Assembly: GCF_028282265.1 (NCBI RefSeq)
Contig: NZ_JANQIH010000102.1
Location: forward strand, 1-44,296
From: Allomuricauda sp.
Lineage (GTDB): Bacteria > Bacteroidota > Bacteroidia > Flavobacteriales > Flavobacteriaceae
Direction: 5' to 3'
Length of the DNA: 44,296 bases
Made by a program: the position numbers and the translations under genes
In this document: one piece after another, positions 25,426 to 43,078 of the stretch
Position numbering within the stretch: the stretch's first letter is position 1
Layout of the letters: every line of letters starts with the position of its first letter
Notes under the pieces: generated by a model
Databases searched by the model: none
What the model was told of the DNA's origin: nothing
The model's input: the letters and a program-made list of their open reading frames with translations, nothing else

Positions 25426-25490
25426 TTACAACAAGTTGCCTTGGTTTTACAACATAGAATTATGGATAAGTAATATTTATCCTACTTTTC
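25426..25490 (+). promoter_or_regulatory. EPS operon promoter with perfect tandem TTACAACA repeats
   Basis: TTACAACA occurs at 25426-25433 and 25447-25454, starts exactly 21 bp apart. A -7-like box TACTTTTC (25483-25490) begins 29 bases after the end of the second copy. A dyad GGATAA-N7-TTATCC (25464-25482) sits just before the -7 box. The -33 region is poor. The ATG of the receiver gene is at 25528. Shared design with the promoters at 33837 and 43013 points to a common activator, probably LytTR-type. Confidence 0.75.
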
Positions 25491-25527
25491 AAGTGTATTT
25501 AGTACTACAACCCCAAAAAAGTATATC

Positions 25528-25893
25528 ATGAAGATTTTAGTAGTTGATGACAAACAATCCCTTAGTGAGTTGGTGAGCCAATTTTTGGGCCAATCTTACA
25601 ATGTGACCACTATGGAAGATGGCTTGGCGGCCCTGTCCTGGATGCAGGATGGAAATATTCCGGATCTGATTATCACGGACCTTGAAATGCCCAATATGGA
25701 TGGGTTTGAGTTAATCAAAAAAGTAAAGGAAAGTGGATATTTCTCTGATGTTCCTATCATCGTTTTAAGTTGTAGGGACAGTAGCGCCGACCGAATTCAA
25801 TGCCTTAAACTTGGTGCAGACGACTATTTGGTAAAACCCTTCAATCCTGAAGAACTGCTTATCCGGGTAGAAAAACTTCTAGTTCGTACTTAG
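25528..25893 (+). CDS. Receiver-domain response regulator heading the EPS operon
   Basis: 121-aa stand-alone receiver with phospho-acceptor Asp51 (IITDLEMPNMDG), acidic pocket VVDD, switch Ser in VLSCRDSSA and Lys in YLVKPFNPEEL. It has no output domain. It lies 4 nt upstream of the pseudo-receiver-fused sugar transferase, so it may bind or regulate that enzyme by receiver-receiver contact. That role is inferred from context. It is first in the operon driven by the tandem-repeat promoter. Confidence 0.92.
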   Translation: MKILVVDDKQSLSELVSQFLGQSYNVTTMEDGLAALSWMQDGNIPDLIITDLEMPNMDGFELIKKVKESGYFSDVPIIVLSCRDSSADRIQCLKLGADDYLVKPFNPEELLIRVEKLLVRT

Positions 25894-25897
25894 GACC

Positions 25898-27091
25898 ATG
25901 GAAATTGTATCCGATAAAAAAATTCGCCTCCTATATGTGGGGGAGAACAAGAGTGTTGAAGATCAGTTTCAAAATAGTTCGCCTGCTGTAGATTTTCATA
26001 GGGAAAAAAATGCACTGCTCGCGATAAAATGGTTGGAAGAAAATCAGGGTGTGGATGCTATCTTATGTGAAAAACAAATTCCCGGACAATCAGGTATCGA
26101 GTTCCATAAAATCCTGCGAAAGCGTTTTGCGAATGACCATGCCATTCCCTTTATCTTGATTGCTGAGGAAAGAAACAAAGAAGACCTTTCAGAAGCGGTA
26201 AAAAGCGGGATAGATGACTTTTATGTCCATCCGCTTTCCACTTCCAATGTTTTAGACAGGGTACGGTTCCTAAAGGAACTCAAGGCCAATTTGAAACAGG
26301 AGAAGATAGTGCCTCCCGATGGCGCTATAAAAGAATATAGAATAGGGTTTTGGAAAAGGAGTTTTGACATAGCTGTTGCTGGATTGGTGCTGCTTTTGGC
26401 CTCTCCCTTTTTGCTCTTAGTGATATTGGCTATTCGCTTGGAATCCAAAGGAAAAGTGTATTACATCTCAAAGAGAGTAGGAACCGGATATAGGATTTTT
26501 GATTTTTACAAATTGCGTTCCATGTATCCAGATGCCGATAAGCGATTGAAGGAATTCCAGCATTTGAACCAATATGTGCACGATGACGATACTAATGAAG
26601 TAGTAAAAACACCTCAAGAGGAAACAAAAACCTCAGGAACTGTACTTTTTGGTGACGATAGTGAGGTGGATGAATTACAGCATAACAACCAGAGACGTGA
26701 AAGTGCGAAAAGTGCTTTTGTAAAGTTTGACAACGACCCACGAATCACAAAAGTGGGCAAGGTTATACGAAAGTTGAGCATTGACGAACTCCCACAATTG
26801 ATAAATGTATTGAACGGGGATATGTCAATCGTAGGGAACAGACCTTTGCCCTTATATGAAGCTGAGGTGTTGACCACGGACGAATGGACCAATCGTTTCA
26901 ACGGTCCAGCGGGTATCACAGGATTGTGGCAGGTTGAAGCACGGGGACGAAGCTCAAAAATGTCCCCGGAAGAACGAAAACAACTGGACATCAAATACGT
27001 AGAATACGCAAATAGCAAAAACGCATTTCTGATAGATATGTGGATTGTGCTTCGAACCTTTAGAGCGGTCTTTCAAAAAGAAAACGTGTAA
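25898..27091 (+). CDS. Pseudo-receiver fused to a polyprenyl-phosphate glycosylphosphotransferase
   Basis: 397 aa. Residues about 8-125 look like a receiver domain with a broken active site: the phospho-acceptor position is Glu58 (ILCEKQIPGQSG), the acidic pair is reduced to GE, and the Lys-Pro is VHP. Residues 150-182 form the membrane hairpin of the monotopic phosphoglycosyl transferases, followed by YKLRSMYPDAD. A hydrophilic insert runs about 210-272. The catalytic Asp296-Glu297 lies in LSIDELPQLINVLNGDMS, then GNRPLP and GITGLWQVEARGRS. It should load the first sugar phosphate onto undecaprenyl phosphate to begin EPS synthesis. Glu58 may mimic a permanently phosphorylated state. The stop overlaps the next ATG (TAATG). 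Confidence 0.9.
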   Translation: MEIVSDKKIRLLYVGENKSVEDQFQNSSPAVDFHREKNALLAIKWLEENQGVDAILCEKQIPGQSGIEFHKILRKRFANDHAIPFILIAEERNKEDLSEAVKSGIDDFYVHPLSTSNVLDRVRFLKELKANLKQEKIVPPDGAIKEYRIGFWKRSFDIAVAGLVLLLASPFLLLVILAIRLESKGKVYYISKRVGTGYRIFDFYKLRSMYPDADKRLKEFQHLNQYVHDDDTNEVVKTPQEETKTSGTVLFGDDSEVDELQHNNQRRESAKSAFVKFDNDPRITKVGKVIRKLSIDELPQLINVLNGDMSIVGNRPLPLYEAEVLTTDEWTNRFNGPAGITGLWQVEARGRSSKMSPEERKQLDIKYVEYANSKNAFLIDMWIVLRTFRAVFQKENV

Positions 27092-27828
27092 TGACGAAAT
27101 ACTGGGGCATCTTATTGATTTTATTGACATTGCAAACTATTAAAGCGCAGTCTATCAATGATTTTATTGAAAAGGGATTACGGGAGAACGACATCAGCAA
27201 AAAGCTTCCCCCGTTGGACACCCTAATTTCAATGGCCAAAGAGTATTCCCCGTTTATTAAAGTGACCGTTTCGGAACAGCAGTATCGTGACGGTGTTGTA
27301 TCCTTTGAGCAAAGAGCCTGGTTGGAATATATCAATCTTGAGGCTGGTTATAACTATGGGATATTTGATAACCTTAGTAATTCCCAGATAGCGGGTGACC
27401 CTCAAAGTCAGCAGTTGTTCTCCAGTGAACAAAGCAGATATAATGTAGGAGTCTCTGTCCGTTTGCCACTTTCGGCCATAATCAATCGGAGGGCTAGGAT
27501 TTTAAGTGCGAAAGGTGAAGCGGAAAAGGCCCGTTTTGAAACCCAGGTGGCCGAAGTGGAACTGGAGCAAAAGGTAGTTGAGCTTTACAACAACCTGTTG
27601 AAGCATCATCGCATGTTCTTTATTTCTGGTTCAATTGTGGACAATTTTAGGGTGCAATCGCTAAGGGCCGAAAAGGATTTTGCCAACGGGGTCATCAATG
27701 TTACGGAATACACGCGCCTACAACAAATGATGAACCAGGCTACTATGAATTTTGAATTGCAACGGTCCGAATTTGTTTCCTCCGTAATGGCTTTGGAAAA
27801 CATTACCGGAGCCGATTTGAATATCTAA
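27091..27828 (+). CDS. Half-size TolC-family outer-membrane protein
   Basis: 245-aa secreted protein with signal peptide MTKYWGILLILLTLQTIKAQ. It has a single TolC-like repeat: LISMAKEYSPFIKVTVSEQQY, beta-like VGVSVRLPLSAI, and long helices (AEKARFETQVAEVELEQKVVELYNN; ATMNFELQRSEFV; numbering about 140-240). Usual TolC proteins have two such repeats in 410-480 aa. It sits between the sugar transferase and the Wzc-like gene, where a Wza-type export porin is normally found. No Poly_export/SLBB gene is present in this window, so it may provide or support the outer-membrane exit. This is inference. Confidence 0.8.
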   Translation: MTKYWGILLILLTLQTIKAQSINDFIEKGLRENDISKKLPPLDTLISMAKEYSPFIKVTVSEQQYRDGVVSFEQRAWLEYINLEAGYNYGIFDNLSNSQIAGDPQSQQLFSSEQSRYNVGVSVRLPLSAIINRRARILSAKGEAEKARFETQVAEVELEQKVVELYNNLLKHHRMFFISGSIVDNFRVQSLRAEKDFANGVINVTEYTRLQQMMNQATMNFELQRSEFVSSVMALENITGADLNI

Positions 27829-27829
27829 A

Positions 27830-30061
27830 ATGAAGTTTAACCTATTATTCTTTGTTCGCCTTTTACTACGGCATATCAGCCTGTTGATTGCCGTTCCCAT
27901 TATTTTGGCCTCTATGGTATTTTACCTTACCCGAAACGAGCCAAAAGTCTTCAATTCAAAGGCTCGAATTTACACGGGAATTGCTACAGGGTCTAACATT
28001 GAATTGGAGAATACCAAGATAGACTTTAGGGCCACCAATACAGCTTATGACAACCTTTTAAATCTTATCAAGGCTCGTACCACCATTGAGATTGTCGGTC
28101 TCAAATTATTTACCCAACATATGGTGTTGGACAGTGCAGATGTTAAGATAATCTCTTCAAAAAAGTACGGGGAATTAATGCAAATCGTTCCTGATGAAGT
28201 CAAACAATTGGTGGTAAAAGGAGATATCGAAAAGACTTATGAGAATTTTACAAGATTAAAAAATTCCGACCACACCAATTTTATTTACCAGCTCATCAAT
28301 CTGGACCACCCGGATTATAGCATTGAAAAGATTCTGGGACGAATTGGCCTCAGAAGAATCTCGAACAGTGACTTTGTGGATATCGACTTTGAGTCGGAAG
28401 ACCCAGCCATTTGCCAAAATACCCTTTTGATTCTCTGTGAGACCTTCGTGAGACTCAATGCAGATATCAAGGCAAACCAGTCGGATGCCGTAGTGCGATA
28501 TTTTGAAGGGCAACTCAACAAATCGACAGGGCATTTACGAGGGGCTGAAGATGAATTGCTAGATTTCAATAGAACGAACAACATCATCAACTACTACGAA
28601 CAGACCAAACATATTGCGGCCGAAAAAGAGGAATTTGAAATAAAATTCTTTGAAGTGCTTCGCAAGTACCATGCTTCAAAGGCCGTGCTGGAAACTTTGG
28701 AATCTAGGTTAGAGGCCCATGAGTTGAAAAGGATTTCCAGCCAGAGCATTATGAATCTAAGAAAAGAACTTTCACAACTCAATTTTGAGGTCTCCATGAA
28801 AACCCTTGGGTTAGAACAAGATTCAACGCAAGCTCTTAAAAACGCCAGAGATGTAGCCGAAAAAAAAGAACGTATTCGACAGCTAGAACAACAAATGGCT
28901 TCCAATGTAGACACCCTTTACAAAACCGATTTTGATACCAAAAGCATTGCTTCCACAAGTATTCTGGCTGATTGGTTGCAAAAAACCATTGAGTACGAAG
29001 GCTATGATGCGCAGTTAAAGGTAATGGAACAAAAAAGGGAGGAATTCAAGGAGTTGTATCAAGAATTCTCCCCCCTGGGAGCAACCATGAAACGTCTGGA
29101 ACGAAAAATCGATATCGCCGAAAGGGAATATTTAAGTCTTCTCCACAGCTTAGGATTGGCCAAATTGAGACAACAAAATGTGGAGTTGAAATCCAACATT
29201 AAATTGACAGAGGTTCCGTTTTATCCGATCAGCCCAAAACCCAGTAAGCGGATGCTGTTGGTCATTGTAGCCTTTATGGCAGGTTTTGTTCTCGTGGCGG
29301 CTACCATCCTTGTTCTGGAACTTTTGGATGGAAACATTAACACAGCTGCTCGTGCTGAGGATAAAATCGGACTTAAGGTCTCTTCCATTTTCCCGGTAAT
29401 AAGCAACTCAAGTAAAAAGATAGACTACGATTATCTTCAAAACAAGGCGGTCAATGCCATTTCGCGAAATATTATTCTAAACCAGTTCAAAAAGGAAAAA
29501 GAAAATGAGCCCGTGGTCAATATGCTCTTTTCAACCCAAGAAACCGAAGGAAAGACGTTTATCTGCAGGCATCTCATCGCAAAACTCTGTGAGCTCGATT
29601 ACAGGACGTTACATATAACCTATGACGAAGAAGACATAGGTCTTTCCAATGACTACTACACCAAGTTGCGCTATGCTGTCAGCGACCAGTTGTATAAAAT
29701 ATCTTGTATAAAAGAGTTTGATAAAAATCAAATTATTGAAAGTTTTGATGATTTTGATTTCGTCATCTTGGAAATCCCAAGCATTATCAAAAATCCATTT
29801 CCTGTTAAGTTGGCATCCACCATGGACTATACATTTCTGGTTACACGGGCCAATAGAGCATGGGGTGAGGCAGACAAGAACGCCCTTGAGCTTTTTAACG
29901 AAGCTACCACCGGTCCCGAACCCACAATCATTTTAAATGGGGTCAAAGTATTGGAAATGGAGACAGTGGTTGGTGACCTTCCCAAAAAGAGGTCGATTAT
30001 AAGAAAATGGGTGAAAAAGGCAGTTCAGTTTCGATTTTTCACCAAAACCTCCGTGGCCTAA
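27830..30061 (+). CDS. Wzc-like chain-length/export protein with degenerate kinase domain
   Basis: 743-aa inner-membrane protein. A membrane segment at about 15-32, a large periplasmic region with coiled coils (about 220-450) and a second membrane segment at about 473-497 preceded by the proline-rich FYPISPKPSKR give the Wzz/Wzc layout. The cytosolic domain resembles a BY-kinase but is altered. The P-loop region reads STQETEGKT (Lys575). The Walker B position is FVILEIPS with Glu648 in place of Asp. The C-terminus has no tyrosine cluster. It probably controls chain length and export without being an active tyrosine kinase. The stop overlaps the flippase ATG. Confidence 0.88.
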   Translation: MKFNLLFFVRLLLRHISLLIAVPIILASMVFYLTRNEPKVFNSKARIYTGIATGSNIELENTKIDFRATNTAYDNLLNLIKARTTIEIVGLKLFTQHMVLDSADVKIISSKKYGELMQIVPDEVKQLVVKGDIEKTYENFTRLKNSDHTNFIYQLINLDHPDYSIEKILGRIGLRRISNSDFVDIDFESEDPAICQNTLLILCETFVRLNADIKANQSDAVVRYFEGQLNKSTGHLRGAEDELLDFNRTNNIINYYEQTKHIAAEKEEFEIKFFEVLRKYHASKAVLETLESRLEAHELKRISSQSIMNLRKELSQLNFEVSMKTLGLEQDSTQALKNARDVAEKKERIRQLEQQMASNVDTLYKTDFDTKSIASTSILADWLQKTIEYEGYDAQLKVMEQKREEFKELYQEFSPLGATMKRLERKIDIAEREYLSLLHSLGLAKLRQQNVELKSNIKLTEVPFYPISPKPSKRMLLVIVAFMAGFVLVAATILVLELLDGNINTAARAEDKIGLKVSSIFPVISNSSKKIDYDYLQNKAVNAISRNIILNQFKKEKENEPVVNMLFSTQETEGKTFICRHLIAKLCELDYRTLHITYDEEDIGLSNDYYTKLRYAVSDQLYKISCIKEFDKNQIIESFDDFDFVILEIPSIIKNPFPVKLASTMDYTFLVTRANRAWGEADKNALELFNEATTGPEPTIILNGVKVLEMETVVGDLPKKRSIIRKWVKKAVQFRFFTKTSVA

Positions 30062-31404
30062 TGTTGGGAAAGCTTAAAAATATCGGTAAAGAAAAAAATC
30101 TTTCCTCGCTGGTGGCTAATGTAAGTGTTGCTTTTTTGGGGTTGTTGAGCTTTATGTTGTTGACCCGTCAATTGAGCAAAGAACTTTTTGGGGAATGGGT
30201 GCTTTTCATCACCCTAGCCACCTTTGTCGACCTTTTACGCTTTGGATTGACAAGAACCTCTTCGGTAAGATTGTTATCCGGCGCCAATGATGAAAAAAAG
30301 AAAACCATTTTAGGGGCATCCTTTCGAATCAATGTGGTTCTCTTACTGGTTTTGACTCTTTTCTGTTGGCTTCTTTACGGACTGGTGAGTCTTGTAGATT
30401 TTGAAATCAACAATGGATATCTTTTATTTTTGATTTACTACCCATTTCTGGCGCTATCCAACTTAAGTTGGAACAATGCCATGTCACTTTTTCAAGCGGA
30501 ACAAAATTTTAGCAGGATGATGGTGGTGCGTCTTTCCAATGTCGGCTTGTTCTGTATCTTTTTGGTGGCCAACTATGTTTGGCTCGGCTTGGGTTTGATA
30601 GAAATTATTTGGGTAAACATCATTGTCAATGCCATCTCTGGTTTGTGGTGCTCAGTAAGAAATTGGGATGGACTTCTGTACCTTACCCATGCCAAAAGAA
30701 AGGTTGAAAAAGAACTTATCAACTTCGGAAAATATTCCATGGGGACTTTGATAAGTTCAAGCCTTTTGAAGAGCTCCGATACCTTGATCATAGGCATGAG
30801 TCCTTTTCTAGGTTCGGCGGGAATCGCCATGTACGCCATCCCGCTAAAACTAACGGATTTGTTGGGTATCCCCCTGCACAGTTTTGCTATGACGGCCTAT
30901 CCTCGAATGTCCAAAAATTGTATCGATGGAAATATTAGCGGTGCCAAAAGAGTCTTTTATTCCTATGTGGGTATTGTGACCCTTTTGTTTTTTCCAGTTG
31001 CCCTTGCAGCGTTCATTATGGCCGAACCTTTGGTGTTGATTTTGGGTGGAGATGAGTATAAAGATGCACTTCCATTGTTGACTCTGATATTTCGAGTGTT
31101 TACCATATATACCATGCTACTCCCTTTAGATCGTTTCACGGGAGTTCTTTTGGATAGCATCAACAGGCCCAAACTGAATCTGTACAAGGTATTGGTTATG
31201 ACATTTGCCAATATGGTCCTTAACCTAATCGCGGTTTTTGTTTTGAAGAGTCTAGTGGCGGTGGCAGTCGGAACTGTTTTGTTCACTTTAATGGGAATTT
31301 TTATGGGTTTCCGTTATCTGAAAAGGGAAATTCAAGTGAAGGGAAGGGACATTGTTTCTGAGAGCATGTTGTTTTTGAAAAACCTAAAAACCCATTTAGG
31401 CTGA
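30061..31404 (+). CDS. Wzx-type polysaccharide flippase
   Basis: 447-aa integral membrane protein with about 12-14 segments, of the MATE/MOP polysaccharide transporter family. Typical features are the N-terminal SLVANVSVAFLGLLSFMLLTRQLSKELFGEW and LLKSSDTLIIGMSPFLGSAGI in the middle (both longer helices, quoted in part). It should flip the lipid-linked repeat unit across the inner membrane. ATG 30061 is preferred because it forms a TAATG overlap with the preceding stop; an in-frame ATG at 30007 would add 18 charged residues inside the Wzc-like gene. The stop overlaps the polymerase ATG (TGATG). Confidence 0.88.
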   Translation: MLGKLKNIGKEKNLSSLVANVSVAFLGLLSFMLLTRQLSKELFGEWVLFITLATFVDLLRFGLTRTSSVRLLSGANDEKKKTILGASFRINVVLLLVLTLFCWLLYGLVSLVDFEINNGYLLFLIYYPFLALSNLSWNNAMSLFQAEQNFSRMMVVRLSNVGLFCIFLVANYVWLGLGLIEIIWVNIIVNAISGLWCSVRNWDGLLYLTHAKRKVEKELINFGKYSMGTLISSSLLKSSDTLIIGMSPFLGSAGIAMYAIPLKLTDLLGIPLHSFAMTAYPRMSKNCIDGNISGAKRVFYSYVGIVTLLFFPVALAAFIMAEPLVLILGGDEYKDALPLLTLIFRVFTIYTMLLPLDRFTGVLLDSINRPKLNLYKVLVMTFANMVLNLIAVFVLKSLVAVAVGTVLFTLMGIFMGFRYLKREIQVKGRDIVSESMLFLKNLKTHLG

Positions 31405-32882
31405 TGAGTCCTTTTGAAGCTACACAAGGGTCTGATTACTTGAGGAAGCCACTTCCCATTCTCATCGTTCTATCCATCGCATTGGCATCAGGACATTTGA
31501 CGGCAACAAGGGGTCTAGTGGCTGGAATTGCTATTATGATGCTGCCATTTGTTTTTCTGTATTTGGGAGCACTATTCGTGAATCCAAGGATTGGTGTAGT
31601 CACCGTACTTATCTTCAATTTCTTTGTGCTCGGCATAGGAAGATACATCCCCATGACATGGGGCTTGCTAATGGATGGGCTTATGGTGTTGATGTATTTA
31701 GCTTTGTTTTTTAAGGCCTTTCGCTTAAAGGTACCTTGGGACCGGGCTAAATCACAGCTTACCTTATTGGCCTCGGTTTGGTTTGGCTATGCCATTTTTC
31801 AGATTGTGAATCCAGAAGCAGTTAGTATTGCCGCTTGGTTTTATGCCATGAGGGGATTGTCGTTGTATATGTGGCTTTTCATCCCTTTGGTTTTTATCCT
31901 TTTCAATAAACCCAGAGACCTGCATTTGTTTTTTGTGATTTGGGGAGCACTCTCCTTTTTGGCCACATTGAAGGGAATGCAACAACTCATTTTCGGGGTG
32001 GACTCGTACGAACAAGCTTGGTTGGATGCTGGGGGTGCTGTTACCCACGTCCTCTTTGGAAAGCTGAGAATATTTTCTTTTTACTCCGATGCAGGACAGT
32101 TTGGGGCGTCCCAGGGACATACAGGGGTTGTATTTGGCATTTTGGCACTTTTTGCAAAAAATAGAAAGATGCAAGTTTTGTTCGGTATAGTTGCTGTGGC
32201 CGGACTTTTAGGAATGATGATTTCCGGAACCCGAGGAGCTATTGCCGTACCAGCAGCAGCTGGGATTATGTTCTTGATTGTTCGAAAGCATATTCCCAGT
32301 ATTGTACTTGGTGCACTTTTGGGGATTGGTGTTTTCGTATTCTTCAAATACACCACTATTGGAAATGACAATGATCAAATTCGAAGGATGCGTACCGCTT
32401 TCGACCCCAATGATGCCTCATTGCAGGTGCGGCTTGAAAATCAAGCTAAGCTAAGCGGTTATTTATCATCAAGACCATTTGGCGGGGGAATAGGTTCCAC
32501 CGGAAACTGGGGCAAACGGTTTTCGCCGAACACCTTTTTGGCCAATACGGCCACCGATAGTTGGTTTGTTGCAGTCTGGGCGGATACCGGAATCGTCGGA
32601 CTTTATTTGCATTTGTTCATCTTATTTTTTGTCATCATCACAGGGGCTTATAATGTGATGTTTAAAATCCGGGATGGTTGGCTAAAAGGACAGATTACGG
32701 CATTGGTCTGTGGCATGTTCGGAATTATGGCCGCCTCTTACGGGAATGGGGTGTTTGGTCAATTTCCGACCTGTATCCTCATGTATGCCGGAATGGTGTT
32801 CATGTTTATTGCTCCAAAACTGGACAGACAAATTCTTGAAGAAAAACAAAGGGCTGGAGAAGCACTTGAACTTACCCCATAA
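31404..32882 (+). CDS. Wzy-like polysaccharide polymerase (O-antigen ligase family)
   Basis: 492-aa membrane protein with about 12 segments and one large periplasmic loop, as in the Wzy_C/O-antigen ligase family. The loop region includes FSFYSDAGQFGASQGH and SGTRGA before it, and FGGGIGSTGNWG within the second loop. Placement directly after a flippase favours a Wzy polymerase that links repeat units in the periplasm rather than a ligase. The start overlaps the flippase stop. Confidence 0.85.
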   Translation: MSPFEATQGSDYLRKPLPILIVLSIALASGHLTATRGLVAGIAIMMLPFVFLYLGALFVNPRIGVVTVLIFNFFVLGIGRYIPMTWGLLMDGLMVLMYLALFFKAFRLKVPWDRAKSQLTLLASVWFGYAIFQIVNPEAVSIAAWFYAMRGLSLYMWLFIPLVFILFNKPRDLHLFFVIWGALSFLATLKGMQQLIFGVDSYEQAWLDAGGAVTHVLFGKLRIFSFYSDAGQFGASQGHTGVVFGILALFAKNRKMQVLFGIVAVAGLLGMMISGTRGAIAVPAAAGIMFLIVRKHIPSIVLGALLGIGVFVFFKYTTIGNDNDQIRRMRTAFDPNDASLQVRLENQAKLSGYLSSRPFGGGIGSTGNWGKRFSPNTFLANTATDSWFVAVWADTGIVGLYLHLFILFFVIITGAYNVMFKIRDGWLKGQITALVCGMFGIMAASYGNGVFGQFPTCILMYAGMVFMFIAPKLDRQILEEKQRAGEALELTP

Positions 32883-32898
32883 CCTAAAATACCAACCC

Positions 32899-33783
32899 AT
32901 GAAACCACTTGTGTCAATCATCACTATTAACTATAATGAATCTGGAGTTACTTTGGAGCTATTGGAATCCATCCGAAAACTATCGTATCCCAATATTGAG
33001 GTATTGGTGGTGGATAATGCTTCCCCAAATGATACTCCTGATGTCATCAAGGAAAACTATCCTGAGATAAAACTGATAAAAAGCCCAGAAAACTTAGGTT
33101 TTGCTGGAGGCAACAATTTAGGGGTAAAAGAAGCCAAAGGGGAGTACCTTCTTTTCATTAACAACGATACCATAGTCCCCGAAGGTTTTATCGAACCCTT
33201 GGTGGAGACACTTCAGTCAGATGAAACCATTGGCATGGTGAGCCCTAAAATTAAATTTCATTGGGATACTACCCTAATACAATATGCAGGTTACACGGCT
33301 ATGAACAAATGGACCATTCGTAACAACAGCATCGGGTATCATCAAACAGACAATGGGGATTATGATGTAGCTGGGGAAACCGAATCCATTCATGGTGCGG
33401 CAATGATGGTTCCGAAAAGGGTAGTAGACAAGGTCGGGATGATGACCGAGATTTACTTTTTGTACTATGAGGAGCATGACTGGGCCGAAATGGTGAAACG
33501 GGCAGGTTATAGAATTTTCTATCAACCAAAATCATACATTCTTCATAAGGAATCTGTATCTACCGGAAAGTTCAGTCCATTGAAAACCTATTATATCTCA
33601 AGAAATCGGATTCTTTTTGCACGTAGGAATTTTAAATCCTTGGAACTATTTGTAAGTCTGCTGTTTCAGTGTTTTGTCTCTATCCCCAAAAACAGTTTAA
33701 AACATTTGTTGCGAAAAGAGTTTGACCATTTTAAAGCGCTTTGGAAAGCTATCTCTTGGAACTTGACCCATAAAGCGGTGTAG
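32899..33783 (+). CDS. Family 2 glycosyltransferase (rhamnosyltransferase-like)
   Basis: 294-aa GT-A enzyme with LVSIITINYNESGVTLELL, VLVVDNASPNDTP, LGFAGGNNLGV and the metal-binding LLFINNDTIVPEGF, then IHGAAMMVPKRV and YYEEHDWAEMVKRAG. This pattern is common in WbbL-type rhamnosyl- and related transferases. ATG 32899 gives the family N-terminus MKPLVSIITI; an upstream extension of the frame runs through the polymerase gene and is rejected. It is the last gene of the run that starts at 25528. Confidence 0.9.
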   Translation: MKPLVSIITINYNESGVTLELLESIRKLSYPNIEVLVVDNASPNDTPDVIKENYPEIKLIKSPENLGFAGGNNLGVKEAKGEYLLFINNDTIVPEGFIEPLVETLQSDETIGMVSPKIKFHWDTTLIQYAGYTAMNKWTIRNNSIGYHQTDNGDYDVAGETESIHGAAMMVPKRVVDKVGMMTEIYFLYYEEHDWAEMVKRAGYRIFYQPKSYILHKESVSTGKFSPLKTYYISRNRILFARRNFKSLELFVSLLFQCFVSIPKNSLKHLLRKEFDHFKALWKAISWNLTHKAV

Positions 33784-33836
33784 AATAATACCAAGCTTCC
33801 GTCTTACTGGAAATTTTATAGAAGTAGAAGGCTCAT

Positions 33837-33903
33837 TTACAACAGGATTGATGCGCTTTACAACAATTACTTTTCTTTCCAAAAATGTAAGATAATATTT
33901 ACA
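33837..33903 (+). promoter_or_regulatory. ugd promoter with perfect tandem TTACAACA repeats
   Basis: TTACAACA occurs at 33837-33844 and 33858-33865, starts exactly 21 bp apart. A -7-like box AATATTTA (33894-33901) begins 29 bases after the second copy ends, as in the other three promoters. The -7 region is embedded in TGTAAGATAATATTTACA (33886-33903), found again with one change upstream of rfbB. The ATG of ugd is at 33955. Confidence 0.75.
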
Positions 33904-33954: not shown

Positions 33955-35307
33955 ATGAACATTACAGTTGTTGGAACAGGTTATGTAGGACTGGTAACGG
34001 GAACCTGCTTTGCCGAAACGGGAATCAACGTGACCTGCGTTGATATCGACGAGAAAAAAATTGAAAAGCTCCGTAACGGGGAGGTACCTATATACGAGCC
34101 AGGATTGGACTCACTTCTGGAACGAAACATAGATAAAGGGCGTATTCATTTCACAACCAGCCTCGAAAAGGGAATCCAAGAAAGTGATGCCGTATTTATC
34201 GCTGTGGGTACTCCACCCGATGAAGACGGAAGTGCTGACCTAAAATATGTGCTTGGGGTTGCCCGAGAGGTAGGGCAGCATATGCAAGACTACAAGGTAA
34301 TCATTACCAAAAGTACGGTACCCGTAGGAACCTCATTCAAAGTAAAAGCAGCTGTGGAGGAAGAATTGGCGAACAGAAAAGTTCGTATCCCATTCGATGT
34401 TGCCTCCAACCCAGAATTTTTAAAGGAGGGAAGTGCTGTGGATGACTTCCTTAAGCCTGACAGAATCGTTGTTGGAGTAGAAAGTAAAAGGGCCGAGAAA
34501 GTGATGCGAAAGCTGTACAAACCGTTCCTGATGAACGGTCACCCCTTATTGTTCATGGACATTTTCTCTTCGGAGATGACCAAGTATGCCGCCAACTCCA
34601 TGTTGGCCACTAAAATCAGTTTTATGAACGATATCGCCAACCTATGTGAATTGGTAGGAGCAAATGTTGATTTAGTACGTAAAGGAATTGGTTCAGATTC
34701 CAGAATAGGGAACAAGTTCATTTATCCAGGAACCGGTTATGGGGGAAGTTGTTTCCCTAAAGATGTTCAAGCCTTGGTTCGAACTGCTGACGAATACGGT
34801 CACTCTCTAGAAGTTTTAAAAGCAGTCGAAAGTGTTAACTATCGCCAGAAATCCATTTTGGTGGAAAAAATTAAACAACATTTTGGTGAGAATCTTAAGG
34901 GCAAACAATTTGGCTTATGGGGATTGTCTTTCAAACCCAAAACAGATGATATGCGCGAAGCACCGTCCTTGGTCATCGTGGACCAATTGGTTGCTTTGGG
35001 AGCAACGGTCCGAGCCTACGACCCCGTAGCGATGGAGGAAGCGAAACGCATTTTAGGGGATAAGATTGAATATGCCAAGGATGAATATGATGCCATAATC
35101 GATGCTGATGCCTTGATATTGGTGACCGAATGGTCAGAATTTAGAATGCCCAACTTCCGAATATTGGAAAAGCTTATGACCAGTAAGACCATTTTTGATG
35201 GTCGTAATGTCTACGATACGGAGGAAATGGTGGAGCTTGATTTCACATATTACAGTATTGGTAGAGAAGTGGTTAAGAATACAGAAGTGGAAACCATTAA
35301 CGCTTAA
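33955..35307 (+). CDS. ugd: UDP-glucose 6-dehydrogenase
   Basis: 450-aa NAD-dependent enzyme that oxidises UDP-glucose to UDP-glucuronate. The N-terminal Rossmann motif is VVGTGYVGLVTG, NPEFLKEGSAVDDF and KYAANSMLATKISFMNDIAN are family signatures, and the catalytic Cys266 lies in TGYGGSCFPKD. The C-terminal domain has GLSFKPKTDDMREAPS. Its product feeds the next gene. It is driven by the TTACAACA promoter and probably starts a second EPS operon running to about 41752. Confidence 0.96.
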   Translation: MNITVVGTGYVGLVTGTCFAETGINVTCVDIDEKKIEKLRNGEVPIYEPGLDSLLERNIDKGRIHFTTSLEKGIQESDAVFIAVGTPPDEDGSADLKYVLGVAREVGQHMQDYKVIITKSTVPVGTSFKVKAAVEEELANRKVRIPFDVASNPEFLKEGSAVDDFLKPDRIVVGVESKRAEKVMRKLYKPFLMNGHPLLFMDIFSSEMTKYAANSMLATKISFMNDIANLCELVGANVDLVRKGIGSDSRIGNKFIYPGTGYGGSCFPKDVQALVRTADEYGHSLEVLKAVESVNYRQKSILVEKIKQHFGENLKGKQFGLWGLSFKPKTDDMREAPSLVIVDQLVALGATVRAYDPVAMEEAKRILGDKIEYAKDEYDAIIDADALILVTEWSEFRMPNFRILEKLMTSKTIFDGRNVYDTEEMVELDFTYYSIGREVVKNTEVETINA

Positions 35308-35316
35308 CGCAACAAC

Positions 35317-36285
35317 ATGAAAAGAATATTGGTCACGGGAGGTGCAGGTTTTGTAGGCTCACATTTGTGCGAAAGACTGTTGGACGATGGCAATGAGGTC
35401 ATCAGCATGGACAACTATTTCACGGGAAGAAAAAGCAAGATTGTCCATTTACTGGAGAACCCCTATTTCGAAATCATCAGACATGATGTAACCTTACCAT
35501 ACTTTTTGGAGGTGGATGAAATCTACAATCTAGCTTGCCCAGCTTCTCCTGTTCATTACCAGCATAATCCTATCAAGACCATAAAAACATCGGTTCTTGG
35601 TGCCATCAATATGTTGGGTTTGGCGAAGCGGATAAAGGCAAAAATATTGCAGGCTTCCACGAGCGAAGTATACGGAGACCCCGAGATACATCCTCAGCCC
35701 GAGGATTACTGGGGACATGTGAACCCAATTGGAATCCGCTCTTGCTATGATGAAGGGAAGCGATGTGCCGAATCCCTTTTTGTCAATTACCATCAATCCA
35801 ATGATGTACTGGTCAAGATTGTTCGCATTTTCAATACCTACGGACCTCGAATGGAACCAGATGATGGTAGGGTGGTTTCCAACTTTATCATGCAGGCCCT
35901 ACAAGGAAAAGATATTACCGTTTTTGGTGATGGAACCCAAACGAGAAGCTTTCAGTATGTAAGTGATTTGGTAGATGGTATGATCAAAATGATGGACACT
36001 GAAGATGAGTTCATTGGCCCAATTAATATTGGAAACCCTGGTGAGTTTACCATGTTGGAATTGGCAGAGAACATCATTGACCTTACCGGTTCAAAATCAA
36101 GAATCATTCATCTACCCCTGCCTTCAGATGACCCAATGCAACGCAAGCCCGATATTTCATTGGCCCAGGAAAAATTGAAGGATTGGAAGCCTAGAGTGGA
36201 CTTGAGAACAGGTTTGGGTAAGACGATTGAATATTTTGATAATCTACTCAAGGAAAAATCAATCAAAGAACTTATTGAAGGCTAG
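35317..36285 (+). CDS. uxs: UDP-glucuronate decarboxylase (UDP-xylose synthase)
   Basis: 322-aa short-chain dehydrogenase that turns UDP-glucuronate into UDP-xylose and CO2. It has the NAD-binding [31 protein letters not shown], the TSEVYGDP strand and the catalytic YDEGKR (Tyr-x-x-x-Lys). NTYGPRM and DGRVVSNFI are typical of UXS rather than of 4-epimerases. It lies 9 nt after ugd, so the pathway UDP-glucose to UDP-xylose is complete. The polymer probably contains xylose and/or glucuronate. Confidence 0.94.
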
Positions 36286-36308
36286 CCTTAAGCAGTATCT
36301 GTTTTAAT

Positions 36309-37517: not shown

Positions 37518-37518
37518 G

Positions 37519-38676: not shown

Positions 38677-38677
38677 T

Positions 38678-39871
38678 ATGATCAAAGATCGAGATATTGT
38701 CGTAATAGGAATTCAGGCCTGGGATATTGAGATTGGCAGCAACTGCAAAAATATTGCAAGAGAATTTGCCAGACATAACCGTGTGCTCTATGTGAATCCA
38801 CCTTTGGACAGAGCAACCTTGCGAAGGGATAAACATAATGAAAAGGTGCAAAAAAGGATTCGAATTCGGAACGGGCAGGAAGAAGGTTTGGTCAAAATAG
38901 AAGAGAAGCTGTGGAATCTTTATCCGAAATCCATGACTGAATCCATCAACTGGATTCCTTTTCATGGGCTTTTCAAGATATTGAATAAAAGAAATTCCAA
39001 AATTTTTGCCGAAGACATTAAAGGAGCCATAAAGGAACTTGGGTTTGAAAATGTTCTTCTTTTCAATGACAGTTCCATGTTTTTGGGATTGCACCTAAAG
39101 GAATTTTTAACCCCTCAGAGTTATACCTATTACATGAGGGATTACCTCATAAAGGTGCCTTACTGGCAAAGGCACGGAGAGCGCATTGAGCCTCAAATAT
39201 TAGCCAAAGCGGACACCGTGGTCAACAATTCAACATTGTACGCAGAGTACGGGTCAAAATATAACCCCAATAGTTTTATGGTAGGGCAAGGATGCGATGT
39301 GAGCCTTTTTAATGATGAAGGGAATAACATAGAGATTCCAAAGGAATTTGAATCAATTCCCAGACCCATTTTAGGATATGTCGGCTATTTAACAAGTATG
39401 CGTCTCGACCTGGAACTCTTGGAATATTTGGCCACTCAAAGGCAAAATTGGAGTATTGTTTTGGTCGGTCCCGAAGATGAGGATTTTCGTAATTCACGAT
39501 TGCACGAGTTGGACAATGTCTTCTTTTTAGGAAGTAAAGACGCTTTGGAGTTGCCAGCCTATGTTAAAGGGTTTGATGTGGCCATGAATCCACAAGTAGT
39601 AAATGATTGGACCATCGGAAACTATCCTAGAAAGATTGATGAATACTTGGCAATGGGGAAACCTACTTTGGCCACAAGAACCAAAGCAATGGAAATGTTC
39701 GAAAATCATGTGTATTTGGGCTCAAACCAAGAAGAATACCTTCAGTTGGCTGAAAAAGCGCTAGCAGAAAACTCAGAATTTTTAGAAGAACAACGTATCG
39801 CCTTTGCCAATGGTCATACGTGGGAAAACAATGTTTTGGCCATATATGAGGCTATCAAAAAATCAGCGTAA
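38678..39871 (+). CDS. GT-B-fold glycosyltransferase (TuaH-like)
   Basis: 397-aa protein. The N-terminus (IVVIGIQAWDIEIGSNCKNI, REFARHNRVLYVNPPLDR) matches the group annotated as TuaH-like glycosyltransferases. The C-terminal domain has PILGYVGYLTSMRLDLELL, VLVGPEDEDFRNS, NVFFLGSKDALELPAYVKGF, and PRKIDEYLAMGKPTLAT. ATG 38678 is 1 nt after the preceding stop; an upstream extension of the frame lies inside the previous gene and is less likely. Donor and acceptor unknown. Confidence 0.82.
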   Translation: MIKDRDIVVIGIQAWDIEIGSNCKNIAREFARHNRVLYVNPPLDRATLRRDKHNEKVQKRIRIRNGQEEGLVKIEEKLWNLYPKSMTESINWIPFHGLFKILNKRNSKIFAEDIKGAIKELGFENVLLFNDSSMFLGLHLKEFLTPQSYTYYMRDYLIKVPYWQRHGERIEPQILAKADTVVNNSTLYAEYGSKYNPNSFMVGQGCDVSLFNDEGNNIEIPKEFESIPRPILGYVGYLTSMRLDLELLEYLATQRQNWSIVLVGPEDEDFRNSRLHELDNVFFLGSKDALELPAYVKGFDVAMNPQVVNDWTIGNYPRKIDEYLAMGKPTLATRTKAMEMFENHVYLGSNQEEYLQLAEKALAENSEFLEEQRIAFANGHTWENNVLAIYEAIKKSA

Positions 39872-39881
39872 AACCAATAAA

Positions 39882-40520
39882 ATGGGTTTAAAGGAAAAAG
39901 TTAAGGGAAGTCAAGGACTAAAATCATTCGTTTACTGGCTTATCGTACCTAAAAATCAGGCAAGGCCTCGACTTTGGGTGCAGTGGTTTGTCAACCCTTT
40001 TTATCACAAAAAAGGAAAGCGTTCCAGAATTTGTAGAAGAACCCGTATGGATGTTTTGCCGTGGAACACCTTTGAACTCGGCTCCGATTCAACTATAGAA
40101 GATTTTTCAACCATTAATAACGGAGTAGGCGCCGTTAAGATAGGAAGCCGCACCAGAATCGGACTCGGGAATACCTTAATTGGACCCGTGACCATTGGGG
40201 ATGACGTTCGATTGGCCCAAAATGTAGTACTGTCCGGACTAAACCATAATTACGAAGATGTATCCCAGCCCATTCATGCCCAAGGTGTATCCACATCGCC
40301 CATTGTTGTGGAAGCAGAGACTTGGATTGGGGCCAACACGGTTGTTGTGGCTGGAGTTACCATAGGCAGACACAGCATTGTAGCTGGAGGCAGTGTAGTT
40401 ACCAAAGATGTTCCTCCTTACTCTGTTGTTGTTGGTAATCCGGCAAGGGTAGTGAAACGCTACAATGCTGAAACCAAAACCTGGGAACGGGTAAATCAAA
40501 AGAAACTGGTAGCCGTATAA
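39882..40520 (+). CDS. Hexapeptide-repeat (LbH) acyltransferase
   Basis: 212-aa protein. Residues about 60-195 form a left-handed beta-helix with repeated [LIV]G-x4 units (VKIGSRTRIGLGNTLIGPV, VTIGDDVRLAQNVVLSG) and the maltose/galactoside-acetyltransferase-type active-site region GLNHNYEDVSQPIHAQG with a catalytic His. The end has GGSVVTKDVPPYSVVVGNPAR. It probably O-acetylates a sugar of the repeat unit. ATG 39882 is chosen because it follows the previous stop by 10 nt; a longer frame would overlap that gene. Confidence 0.88.
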   Translation: MGLKEKVKGSQGLKSFVYWLIVPKNQARPRLWVQWFVNPFYHKKGKRSRICRRTRMDVLPWNTFELGSDSTIEDFSTINNGVGAVKIGSRTRIGLGNTLIGPVTIGDDVRLAQNVVLSGLNHNYEDVSQPIHAQGVSTSPIVVEAETWIGANTVVVAGVTIGRHSIVAGGSVVTKDVPPYSVVVGNPARVVKRYNAETKTWERVNQKKLVAV

Positions 40521-40543
40521 CCTAAACCTCAAATCATTTTCAA

Positions 40544-41752
40544 ATGGAGTTTTTAAAATATTTCTTCTGGATTTCCCTATTCATCATTTTCTATTCCTAT
40601 GTCGGGTATGGGATTCTTCTCTTTGTAATCATTAAAATCAGAAGAATGCTCGGACTGGGAAAACCCTTTCAAGGGAATGAAGATTATGAACCGGAAGTAA
40701 CCCTATTTGTTAGTGCATTCAATGAAAAAGGCTACTTGGATAGAAAGGTCAAAAATTCGCAAGGCTTGAACTATCCGAAAGAAAAAGTAACCCAAATTTG
40801 GGTGACCGATGGTTCTGATGACGGAACTCCTGACTTGCTGAAGCATTATGAAAATGTACAGGTTTACCACAAGGACGAGCGGGCAGGCAAAATTGCAGCC
40901 ATGAACCGAGGAATGGAATTTGTAAAAACTCCGATTGTGATTTTTTCCGATGCGAATACGGATTTAGGTGAAAACTCTATCCAGGAGATTGTTCGACTCT
41001 TTAGAAACCCTAAGGTAGGTTGTGTTTCCGGAGAAAAACGCATTTATTCCAAAGAAGCAGATGGTGCCGCTGGAGCAGGAGAGGGTATTTATTGGAAATA
41101 TGAATCACAATTGAAAAAATGGGATGCCGAGTTGTATTCTGTTGTTGGTGCTGCTGGAGAATTATTTGCTATTAGAACCGAACTTTGGCAACAAGTAGAG
41201 CGTGATACACTTCTTGATGATTTTATGATTTCGTTGCGTGTGGCAATGAAGGGGTACACCATACAATATAACCCAGAGGCATACGCTATTGAAACGGCTT
41301 CGGCCAATGTAAAGGAAGAATTGAAGCGAAAAGTTAGAATTTCTGCAGGGGGTATTCAATCCGTAGTACGACTAAGAAAACTGCTTAACTTCTTTAAGTA
41401 TGGAACACTATCATTTCAGTACATATCGCATCGTGTACTACGATGGACACTAACGCCACTTTTATTATTGTTGATCATACCGGCCAACTTTACGTTAGCC
41501 TTTGATGAGGGACTTTTTTTATTGGGAATATTTAGCTTTCTTTTTTGGGGACAAGTCACTTTTTACTGTGCTGCCTTGCTTGGATGGCTATTGGAAAACC
41601 GACAAATCCGTTTGAAGGCTCTGTTCATTCCTTACTATTTCTTCATTATGAACCTGTCCGTTTTCCTAGGTTTTCGAAGGTATTTGAAGGGAAGCCAATC
41701 GGTGAACTGGGAAAGAGCCAAAAGAGGGGTAAGTACAGAGGCTGTAGCTTAA
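40544..41752 (+). CDS. Membrane-bound family 2 glycosyltransferase
   Basis: 402-aa enzyme with an N-terminal membrane segment (about 5-32), a GT-A domain (VTLFVSAFNEKGYLDRKV, IWVTDGSDDGTPDLL, IVIFSDANTDLGENS, GAAGELFAIRTELW, LLDDFMISLRVAMKG) and at least three C-terminal membrane segments. The usual QxxRW is replaced by a KRKVRISAGGIQS region, so processivity is uncertain. It is the last plus-strand gene of the ugd run and meets the minus-strand receiver-kinase gene with a 4-nt tail overlap. Confidence 0.88.
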   Translation: MEFLKYFFWISLFIIFYSYVGYGILLFVIIKIRRMLGLGKPFQGNEDYEPEVTLFVSAFNEKGYLDRKVKNSQGLNYPKEKVTQIWVTDGSDDGTPDLLKHYENVQVYHKDERAGKIAAMNRGMEFVKTPIVIFSDANTDLGENSIQEIVRLFRNPKVGCVSGEKRIYSKEADGAAGAGEGIYWKYESQLKKWDAELYSVVGAAGELFAIRTELWQQVERDTLLDDFMISLRVAMKGYTIQYNPEAYAIETASANVKEELKRKVRISAGGIQSVVRLRKLLNFFKYGTLSFQYISHRVLRWTLTPLLLLLIIPANFTLAFDEGLFLLGIFSFLFWGQVTFYCAALLGWLLENRQIRLKALFIPYYFFIMNLSVFLGFRRYLKGSQSVNWERAKRGVSTEAVA

Positions 41753-42882
41753 TCTTCTTCTTGGAACAACGGAAGGTCAAAATAAAAAGTACTTCCCTCA
41801 CCCAATTCGCTTTTGATTTTTAGTGTACCGCCATTTTTATTTACAAAACTTTGACACAGTACCAAACCGAGACCGGTACCTGGTTCTTTTTCGGTGCCCA
41901 ATTTGCTGAAATGTTCATTAGGGTTCAATATTTTCTTAATGTCCTCCTTTGAAATTCCATTGCCGTTATCCACTACTTCAAGTGTGATTTTGCCTTTTGT
42001 CAATTTTCCATTGATATGTATGGTACCCTCTACGGGAGTAAATTTAATGGCGTTGGAAACCAAATTGCGAAGTACGGTTTTGATCATGTTGTTATCGGCA
42101 AAGGCAAAAGTGTTTTTGGGCACATTGTTGGACAAAACGATTTTTTTATGTTCGCTGCCCAGCTTTAAAAGACGCAAGGTCTGTTCTACCAATTCGTATA
42201 CATCGAGTTTTTCAGGAATAATCTGTATTTGATCACTTTCCGATTTGGCCCAACCAAGCAAATTTTGAAGCAAATTAAGCGCCTCATCCATGGTTTTCAA
42301 AAGCCCAAATACCGTTTCATCAAGAAACTTATCATCTTTAGGGTCAACAATGCCCCTCATAATAAAATCCATTTTCAACTTGGCAGCACTCAAAGGTGAA
42401 CGAAGGTCGTGACCAATGATAGAGAACATTCTGTCCTTTAAGTCATTGGACTGTTTCAGGTTTTTGGCCTGCTTTTCAATCTGATTTTTGGCGCGAACGA
42501 GCTCTACATGGGTATGTATGCGGGCTATGAGTTCCTGTTCATTAAAAGGTTTTGTGACATAGTCTACCCCGCCCACTTGAAACCCCTTTACCTTGTCTTT
42601 TACATTGACTTTTCCTGTTAGGAAAATGATTGGAATATCCCTGAACTTCTTGAGCTTCTTTATCTTTTCGCATAGCTCAAATCCCTCAATGCGTGGCATG
42701 ATAACATCCAGAAGAATTAAATCGGGCTTTCGTTCTTGTAAAAGTTCAAAAAAGTAGTCATCGTCGCTAGTGCCGACGTATTCATAATCATTTCTTTCAA
42801 GAATGAACCGCAACAGCTCCAAATTGAGCTGTTCATCATCAACGGCAAGGATATATGGTTTTTCCGTAACTTGGTTCTCCAT
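41749..42882 (-). CDS. Receiver-histidine kinase (REC-HisKA-HATPase)
   Basis: 377-aa soluble protein with an N-terminal receiver (VDDE; phospho-acceptor Asp59 in LLLDVIMPRIEG; Thr89; Lys111 in VTKPF), a short coiled coil, HisKA with His158 (IIGHDLRSPLSAAK), and HATPase (NLVSNAIKFTP, DNGNGIS, TGLGLVLCQSF). The receiver at the N-terminus suggests it is itself controlled by phosphorylation. It is the only minus-strand gene within the EPS region. TACTTTCG (complement of 42905-42912) is a weak -7 candidate; the tandem TTACAACA element is absent at the expected distance. Its link to the EPS genes is positional only. Confidence 0.92.
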   Translation of the reverse strand: MENQVTEKPYILAVDDEQLNLELLRFILERNDYEYVGTSDDDYFFELLQERKPDLILLDVIMPRIEGFELCEKIKKLKKFRDIPIIFLTGKVNVKDKVKGFQVGGVDYVTKPFNEQELIARIHTHVELVRAKNQIEKQAKNLKQSNDLKDRMFSIIGHDLRSPLSAAKLKMDFIMRGIVDPKDDKFLDETVFGLLKTMDEALNLLQNLLGWAKSESDQIQIIPEKLDVYELVEQTLRLLKLGSEHKKIVLSNNVPKNTFAFADNNMIKTVLRNLVSNAIKFTPVEGTIHINGKLTKGKITLEVVDNGNGISKEDIKKILNPNEHFSKLGTEKEPGTGLGLVLCQSFVNKNGGTLKIKSELGEGSTFYFDLPLFQEED

Positions 42883-42973
42883 GTAAGATACAAAAGACCT
42901 TACACGAAAGTAGGAAAAAGATTTTGGTTAGATACGAATTCACGTTCATCAAATCAAAGGAAAGGTTAATTAA

Positions 42974-43018
42974 TTGGCAGGCGAATGCTTTAATCCTATA
43001 TTATGCAGGTCCTGCCAA
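42974..43018. repeat. Nested dyad between receiver-kinase and rfbB
   Basis: TTGGCAGG (42974-42981) and CCTGCCAA (43011-43018) are perfect inverted repeats 29 bases apart. The right arm overlaps a second palindrome GCAGGTCCTGC (43005-43015). It lies about 90 bp from either start codon and overlaps the weak upstream activator-type repeat of the rfbB promoter. It could be an operator or part of a mobile repeat. No second copy was seen in the window. Confidence 0.4.
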
Positions 43019-43078
43019 CAAAAAAGGACATTTCACAACATAAATTGAGCACATCAATATTGTAAGATTATATTTACA
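43013..43078 (+). promoter_or_regulatory. rfbB promoter with TCACAACA element
   Basis: TCACAACA (43033-43040) lies 28 bases before the -7-like box TATATTTA (43069-43076). A weaker upstream copy TGCCAACA (43013-43020, six of eight bases) starts 20 bp earlier. The -7 box is inside TGTAAGATTATATTTACA (43061-43078), 17 of 18 identical to the ugd promoter. A TTG at 43045-43047 could serve as -33 element. The ATG is at 43105. Confidence 0.7.

What the first reader, a model, noticed from the sequence alone, without database searches (positions are those of the whole stretch)
25426..43076. A shared tandem-repeat promoter module controls the EPS genes with fixed geometry
TTACAACA/TCACAACA sits exactly 28 bases upstream of a -7-like box at four promoters: 17834/17870, 25447/25483, 33858/33894 and 43033/43069. 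At the ugd and EPS operon promoters a second perfect TTACAACA starts exactly 21 bp upstream (33837, 25426). At the rfbB and H-NOX promoters a degraded copy lies 20 bp upstream. Repeats two helical turns apart are the known binding layout of LytTR dimers, and a LytTR response regulator (23310) is encoded in between. The -33 boxes are poor, which fits an activator-dependent regulon. The sequence is only a partial match to the published LytTR consensus, so the binder is inferred.
Basis: partly seen in the sequence, partly recalled or inferred. Interest (0 to 1): 0.93.

Follow-up and report, generated by a model that had tools for sequence, protein, structure and literature searches.

The report
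Conserved LytTR switch: slime, small RNAs
The same pair of short DNA repeats, 21 bases apart and 28 bases before a predicted promoter box, sits in front of slime-sugar genes here and in front of small-RNA-like genes, tiny-protein genes and a sensor-kinase gene in many related flavobacteria, and is likely the docking site of one response regulator that would switch them on together.

Summary
In the genus (Flagellimonas/Allomuricauda by its nearest named loci) TYACAACA pairs are spaced N13 in 107 of 142 listed pairs; the next commonest spacing has 7. In other genera TAnnTTT begins exactly 28 nt after the second repeat at 51 of 86 sites; offsets other than 28-29 have at most 4. The layout (9-bp TTYACAACA, 12-bp spacer) is the published LytTR layout. 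The named binder is doubtful: the top site lies beside another LytTR regulator ("LytTR-C", contig C300) and its TPR-HisKA_2 kinase, as in 28 of 30 genera. The exact pair occurs in 9 of 10 genera with LytTR-C only and in 4 of 56 with the window's LytTR only. But genera with and without LytTR-C form two clades (40 tested), so this may be one evolutionary event; binding is untested. Other sites lead into sRNA-like genes without Rfam match (20 loci tested) and a 33-35 aa peptide gene (17 sites).

The parts
25425..25433 (+). distal 9-bp repeat CTTACAACA, EPS operon promoter
   Evidence: conserved in relatives
25446..25454 (+). proximal 9-bp repeat TTTACAACA, EPS operon promoter (12-bp spacer)
   Evidence: conserved in relatives
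25483..25489 (+). predicted -7 box TACTTTT, 28 bases after the proximal repeat
25528..33783 (+). EPS genes: receiver-only regulator, receiver-sugar transferase fusion, outer membrane export protein, chain-length-type protein, flippase, Wzy-like protein, glycosyltransferase
   Evidence: Pfam and NCBIfam
33836..33844 (+). distal repeat TTTACAACA, ugd promoter
33857..33865 (+). proximal repeat TTTACAACA, ugd promoter
33894..33902 (+). predicted -7 region TAATATTTA before ugd (nucleotide sugar dehydrogenase, 33955-35307)
43013..43020 (+). degraded distal repeat TGCCAACA, 20 bp upstream of the proximal one, rfbB promoter
43032..43040 (+). proximal repeat TTCACAACA, rfbB promoter
43069..43075 (+). 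predicted -7 box TATATTT, rfbB (dTDP-glucose 4,6-dehydratase, 43105-44142)
17814..17821 (+). very weak distal repeat, H-NOX promoter (4 of 8; overlaps the preceding stop codon)
17833..17841 (+). proximal repeat TTCACAACA, H-NOX promoter
   Evidence: conserved in relatives
17870..17876 (+). predicted -7 box TACTTTT before the H-NOX gene (17896-18438) and the relay genes after it
23310..24020 (+).

Best explanation
The module is a tandem direct repeat of TTYACAACA with a 12-bp spacer, 28 bp upstream of a predicted -7 box, and it is most likely the binding site of LytTR-C, a LytTR response regulator encoded elsewhere in the genome (contig C300:189-944), which is predicted to activate transcription there. 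Inferred steps: the TPR-HisKA_2 kinase encoded next to LytTR-C phosphorylates it; a LytTR-C dimer covers both repeats on one face of the DNA, the proximal one just above a poor -33 element (roughly -49 to -41), and helps RNA polymerase with the main sigma factor open the promoter. It would raise expression of its own kinase (positive feedback), of short terminator-ended RNAs and of a small-peptide gene, and in this genus of the EPS, ugd and rfbB genes and the H-NOX/FIST relay. EPS would so be tied both to an unknown signal read by the LytTR-C kinase and, through the H-NOX/FIST relay and its own LytTR, possibly to nitric oxide. Shown: the motif, its geometry, its conservation, its neighbours and its co-occurrence with LytTR-C. 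Not shown: binding, phosphorylation, activation, the signal.
For: Geometry: N13 in 107 of 142 listed genus pairs; TAnnTTT at +28 in 51 and +29 in 8 of 86 sites of other genera. Blind test: the model from 49 sites of other genera ranks the C300 LytTR-C/kinase site 1st and the four window sites 2nd, 3rd, 9th and 11th genome-wide, and finds only these four in the window. Adjacency: a module scoring 17 or more of 20 lies within 1.5 kb downstream of LytTR-C in 28 of 30 genera (own included; 0 of 600 shuffles), in 27 of the 28 wholly before the kinase match, and 15 of the 28 have more than one; in the genus 54 of 107 N13 sites are 289-1211 nt from the LytTR-C gene. Co-occurrence over 199 genera: exact pair in 33 of 36 with LytTR-C, 7 of 163 without; 9 of 10 with LytTR-C only against 4 of 56 with the window LytTR only. 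H-NOX promoter: 18 of 18 against 0 of 18. LytTR-C has receiver and LytTR domains, its neighbour TPR, HisKA_2 and HATPase. Published LytTR sites: repeats of 9-11 nt, spacer 11-13, no common sequence (PMC4847170, passages); in LytTR Regulatory Systems mostly 12 bp apart, just upstream of -35, with low conservation of the repeat letters (PMC6193735, passages).
Against: No binding or expression data. On a tree of the window-LytTR family, the 20 LytTR-C+ and 20 LytTR-C- genera are one clade each, so the co-occurrence may be one evolutionary event, and that family could itself have changed specificity at the split. EPS promoters do not use TTCACAACA as proximal repeat (TTTACAACA 20, TTGACAACA 7, TTTGCAACA 2 of the 29 loci with a module, read), while 29 of 30 sRNA-G promoters do: a second binder at EPS is possible. 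In 4 of 4 checked EPS genomes without a local window LytTR, an ortholog lies elsewhere. Genus genome G009 has no LytTR-C in its assembly yet keeps an sRNA promoter of this kind. 3 of 36 LytTR-C+ genera have no exact pair, and 7 of 163 without LytTR-C have one. At the receiver gene (RR) of the EPS region only 3 of 8 LytTR-C+ loci of other genera passed the same rule (0 of 4 in LytTR-C-), and upstream of FIST none did. H-NOX has in effect one repeat.
Confidence: 0.7

Rival explanations
1. The window's own LytTR (23310-24020) binds the EPS, ugd, rfbB and H-NOX sites, alone or in competition with LytTR-C, which serves the TTCACAACA sites elsewhere.
For: It is encoded between the target promoters and has the same domains. 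It is local in 25 of 32 EPS loci and present elsewhere in 4 of 4 checked genomes of the other 7. EPS sites have T or G where other sites have C. Its C+ and C- versions are separate clades, so its specificity may have changed.
Against: In 18 of 18 LytTR-C- genera the same H-NOX operon lacks the proximal repeat with -7 box, and the model finds nothing better than E 0.098 in 20 such neighbourhoods, against 21 matches at E 0.008 or better in 20 LytTR-C+ ones (the model was trained on sites of LytTR-C+ genera). The exact pair persists in 9 of 10 genera without this protein. Of 33 genus genomes that have N13 sites and are not among its 32 carriers, 31 were examined for it.
Confidence: 0.22
2. Another factor fixed in the same clade, such as a different activator or an alternative sigma factor, reads TTYACAACA.
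For: Clade-level co-occurrence cannot name the binder; H-NOX promoters keep one repeat plus the -7 box, like a two-part promoter.
Against: 9-bp repeats with 12-bp spacer are the LytTR layout; the site lies beside LytTR-C in 28 of 30 genera; a sigma factor would not need a second copy exactly 21 bp upstream (inference).
Confidence: 0.06
3. Chance repeats in A+T-rich promoters.
For: Copy number alone in the window is unremarkable.
Against: Spacing, -7 distance, conservation and the blind genome ranking.
Confidence: 0.01

Closest known systems
LytTR-family operators (YpdB, AgrA, HdrR/BrsR)
   Same: Two direct repeats of about 9 bp with 12-bp spacer just upstream of the -35/-33 region, at the regulator's own operon or partner and at other targets (PMC4847170, PMC6193735, passages).
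   Different: Repeat sequence TTYACAACA was not in the passages read; Bacteroidota -7 box at a rigid 28-bp distance; targets are EPS, sRNA-like and micropeptide genes; LytTR-C in 36 of 199 genera sampled.
AgrA-RNAIII of Staphylococcus aureus
   Same: A LytTR response regulator acting through direct repeats on its own operon and on a regulatory RNA (PMC4227749, passages).
   Different: Here several short RNA kinds, a HisKA_2 TPR kinase and EPS targets; no homology claimed beyond the LytTR and receiver domains.
H-NOX / FIST (NosP) nitric oxide relays that control biofilm
   Same: The window's H-NOX, FIST, kinase, Hpt and LytTR genes lie before the EPS operon. The biofilm link of H-NOX is from the abstract start of PMC8738867 in a search listing; FIST as NosP is recalled.
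   Different: In this clade the relay's promoter itself carries the proximal repeat, so the relay would be a target as well as an input.
Rfp18 and other sRNAs of Flavobacterium psychrophilum
   Same: Flavobacterial sRNA conserved in a genus (PMC9723704, passages).
   Different: No link to a LytTR module in the passages seen; sequences not compared.

Membership tests
LytTR-type operator | two direct repeats of 9-11 nt separated by 11-13 nt | tested here: met
   9-bp TTYACAACA, 12-bp spacer: the base before the second 8-mer is T in 107 of 109 N13 pairs; 49-site alignment; definition from PMC4847170, passages
LytTR-type operator | fixed place just upstream of the promoter | tested here: met
   28 nt to TAnnTTT in 51 of 86; the promoter boxes are predicted
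LytTR-type operator | located at the regulator's own operon or partner gene | tested here: met
   28 of 30 genera downstream of LytTR-C, 27 wholly before the kinase match
LytTR-type operator | bound by a LytTR protein | not testable with these tools
   needs a DNA-binding assay
Target of the window LytTR (23310) | module present wherever this LytTR and its operon are | tested here: not met
   0 of 18 LytTR-C- genera at H-NOX; exact pair in 4 of 56
Target of LytTR-C | module present wherever LytTR-C is, absent without it | tested here: inconclusive
   exact pair in 33 of 36 with, 7 of 163 without, but the two sets are one clade each among the 40 genera put on a tree
Known Rfam RNA families | match at gathering score | tested here: not met
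   20 loci: only Flavo-1 at L160:1-72 (-), outside the sRNA-like genes

The most novel reading that the evidence does not exclude
LytTR-C is a clade-wide matrix switch of flavobacteria that works through RNA as much as through promoters: besides EPS it fires terminator-ended RNAs carrying repeated CCCAAAU, CUUAACC and CCUACUU motifs, which act as multi-site decoys for an RNA-binding protein or as antisense to mRNA leaders, a Bacteroidota counterpart of the GacA-RsmY/Z logic (recalled) built on a LytTR regulator.
Probability: 0.27. Interest if true: 0.86.

Novelty: new variant of a known kind. Interest (0 to 1): 0.74.

Why it matters
As far as my searches show (listings), no LytTR operator has been described in Bacteroidota in the open-licence papers held. 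Here one operator with rigid geometry, one candidate regulator and eleven ranked sites in a single genome make EPS control directly testable. The same code leads to sRNA-like genes found in 67 of 69 genus genomes and to a conserved micropeptide; the RNAs had no Rfam match in the 20 loci tested, and the peptide was too short for the protein search.

Tried and rejected
Counting TYACAACA alone: not significant, dropped as evidence. G009 as a natural LytTR-C knock-out: rejected, because its sRNA promoter differs from the consensus by one base only (L318), so the gene may simply be in an assembly gap. Phylogenetic profile as proof of the binder: weakened, because LytTR-C+ and LytTR-C- genera are one clade each on the tree. 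EPS loci without a local window LytTR as a test: uninformative, because orthologs lie elsewhere in 4 of 4 genomes checked. Papers: the listings (11 of 12 papers; 20 of 49; 2 of 2; 12 of 42; 8 of 8; 10 of 19) show no title on a LytTR operator or this motif in Bacteroidota; one search found no paper. Open-licence PMC only, and the unlisted papers were not seen. Of the 7 genera with a pair but no LytTR-C, three (G151, G178, G188) look like CAACAA coding repeats by eye; all 7 were left in the counts. The listing was cut by the tool, so its 142 genus pairs, from 58 of 71 genus genomes, are not all. The sRNA-like count (49 of 137 sites) rests on my own terminator rule, and 6 of the 49 (L152, L176, L186, L192, L204, L214) precede the kinase gene, where the hairpin may be an attenuator. 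Micropeptide: I looked only at 17 sites picked, out of 137, for a 33-35 aa ORF before a terminator.
Full report
1. Observation. The repeat copies and four promoters are as described. Three -7 boxes fit TAnnTTT; the ugd one is TAATATTT. The two upstream copies at rfbB and H-NOX are weak (6 of 8 and 4 of 8).

2. Genome. The exact spaced pair occurs three times: twice in the window and once at C300:1230. That third site lies between a LytTR response regulator gene (L004:189-944, here called LytTR-C: receiver and LytTR domains) and a kinase gene with TPR, HisKA_2 and HATPase domains (L004:1377-3431).

3. Geometry in relatives. With the spacer left free from 4 to 30, 107 of 142 listed pairs in the genus have N13, and the next commonest spacer has 7 (the listing was cut by the tool). 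The base before the second copy is T in 107 of 109 N13 pairs, so the unit is TTYACAACA, 9 bp, with a 12-bp spacer. In other genera TAnnTTT starts 28 nt after the second copy in 51 of 86 sites and 29 nt in 8; no other offset scanned exceeds 4. In 51 genus sites away from LytTR-C, 17 are at 28 and no other offset exceeds 3; the sRNA-G promoters among them mostly have TACTTTC or TACATTC in the same place.

4. Blind ranking. A sequence-only model was built from 49 promoters of other genera, taken from the 86 for a -7 box at exactly 28 and for at least 10 differences from each other. In the whole own genome its best matches are C300:1228 (kinase; E 6.5e-7), window 25426 (3.3e-5), window 43016 (4.0e-5), C190:8561 (5.3e-5), C175:6356 (5.5e-5), C232:1940 (1.4e-4), C40:13017 (0.0026), C54:5582 (0.0030), window 33836 (0.0044), C196:9640 (0.0093) and window 17820 (0.04). 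C190 and C175 lead into sRNA-like sequence with a terminator, C232 into a TPR protein, C40 into a frame with PAS domains, C54 into a 228-aa ORF without Pfam match, C196 into two ORFs of 32 and 35 aa and then a terminator-like hairpin.

5. Conservation of the window's promoters. In the 32 named EPS loci the EPS module scores 16 or more of 20 in 28, 15 in L069, and 11 or less in L078-L080, the most distant ones. All 25 with a local window LytTR are among the 28. At H-NOX the proximal repeat with its 28-nt distance is kept in 20 of 21 loci. A module scoring 16 or more lies within 3 kb upstream of ugd in 26 of 26 loci, but in 13 of them it is about 2.1 kb upstream, before another gene, so it is not the ugd promoter everywhere. 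The rfbB promoter was not followed in relatives.

6. Which regulator. LytTR-C is at least 90% identical and full-length in 67 of 69 genus genomes, split in G029 and missing from the G009 assembly. The window LytTR has an ortholog (64% or more) in 32 of 69. Over 199 genera of the family, LytTR-C (E 1e-60) is in 36 and the N13 pair in 40: 33 of 36 with it, 7 of 163 without. Split by both regulators: both 24 of 26, LytTR-C only 9 of 10, window LytTR only 4 of 56, neither 3 of 107. A module lies downstream of LytTR-C in 28 of 30 genera, in 27 of these wholly before the kinase match, and 15 of the 28 have two or three. The window-LytTR neighbourhood was fetched from 20 genera with and 20 without LytTR-C. 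Counting a proximal repeat of 8 or 9 of 9 with the -7 box in register (or a total of 16), the H-NOX promoter passes in 18 of 18 and 0 of 18 that have the gene and enough upstream DNA; most of these have no real distal repeat. Upstream of the receiver gene 3 of 8 and 0 of 4 pass, upstream of FIST 0 of 9 and 0 of 10. The promoter model gives 21 matches at E 0.008 or better in the first set and none better than 0.098 in the second; it was trained on sites of LytTR-C+ genera. Caution: on the tree of the window-LytTR family the two sets are one clade each, so these are not independent trials. The genera and genus genomes that have LytTR-C and the module but not the window LytTR are the stronger argument.

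7. Rest of the regulon. Of 137 N13 sites examined (86 in other genera, 51 in the genus), 49 in 36 genomes lead into a terminator within 450 nt with no ORF of 30 aa or more before it; 6 of these precede the kinase gene. Three kinds of sRNA-like sequence were seen. (a) In other genera: 30 sequences grouped together, of which the 23 longer than 140 nt hold CCCAAAT 31 times (shuffle mean 0.5), CTTAACC 23 (0.4) and CCTACTT 21 (0.3). (b) In the genus, about 130 nt: a covariance model from 13 sequences, 12 of them from the genomes searched, finds it in 67 of 69 genomes at E 1.7e-6 or better. Upstream of the 30 best loci the module scores 17 or more with the -7 box in register in 30 of 30; 15 of the 30 are from genomes where this site was not found by the exact pair. 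Covariation support for its fold is slight (3 of 35 pairs with changes on both sides). (c) A short kind seen in L215, L266 and the own genome at C175. Twenty loci covering the three kinds gave no Rfam match on them at gathering score. Seventeen further sites lead into a 33-35 aa ORF ending KLFML and then a terminator. A relative of the LytTR-C kinase is the first large gene after the exact pair in 11 other genera.

8. Mechanism. With the -7 box at -12 to -5 (PMC9723704, passages), the proximal repeat lies at about -49 to -41 and the distal at -70 to -62. AgrA's promoter-proximal repeats are centred near -60 (PMC4227749, passages). A T-rich stretch about 20 bp before the -7 box is the only -33-like feature of the 49 promoters. 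This fits an activator-dependent promoter. Binding, phosphorylation and activation are inferred.

9. Verdict. A real, clade-wide operator of LytTR type; likely regulator LytTR-C rather than the window's LytTR; regulon wider than EPS.

Noticed in passing
L216, L223, L229, L232, L299-L328 and own genome C190:8429-8559: sRNA-like gene of about 130 nt in 67 of 69 genus genomes, ends in an intrinsic terminator; no Rfam match at gathering score in the loci tested.
   Followed up: partly
L140-L213 (other genera), for example L160 with three tandem copies, L208 with two: A second sRNA-like kind with repeated CCCAAAT, CTTAACC and CCTACTT motifs, sometimes in tandem copies each with its own module.
   Followed up: partly
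L141, L146, L157, L173, L219, L221 and 11 more: Conserved 33-35 aa ORF ending KLFML directly after the module, then a terminator. In about 13 of the 17 a GNAT-like gene follows, judged by eye; only the one in L146 was run against Pfam.
   Followed up: partly
own genome C196:9640 (L280): Two neighbouring ORFs of 32 and 35 aa with similar-looking sequence after a module-like promoter, then a terminator-like hairpin.
   Followed up: no
window 25898-27091: Sugar transferase of the EPS operon with an N-terminal receiver domain (Response_reg and Bac_transf), next to a receiver-only protein.
   Followed up: no
L049-L077, EPS promoters: Proximal repeat at EPS is TTTACAACA, TTGACAACA or TTTGCAACA in 29 of 29 loci, never TTCACAACA, unlike the sRNA and H-NOX promoters.
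   Followed up: partly
downstream of LytTR-C, L081-L110: 15 of the 28 loci with a module have two or three of them in tandem before the kinase gene, some leading into short terminator-ended leaders.
   Followed up: partly
L160:1-72 (-): Flavo-1 RNA (RF01705) at the edge of a locus with three tandem sRNA-like genes.
   Followed up: no
L329-L348: The H-NOX...LytTR operon exists in many genera without LytTR-C and has no TTYACAACA repeat at its H-NOX promoter there, so that promoter differs between the two clades.
   Followed up: yes
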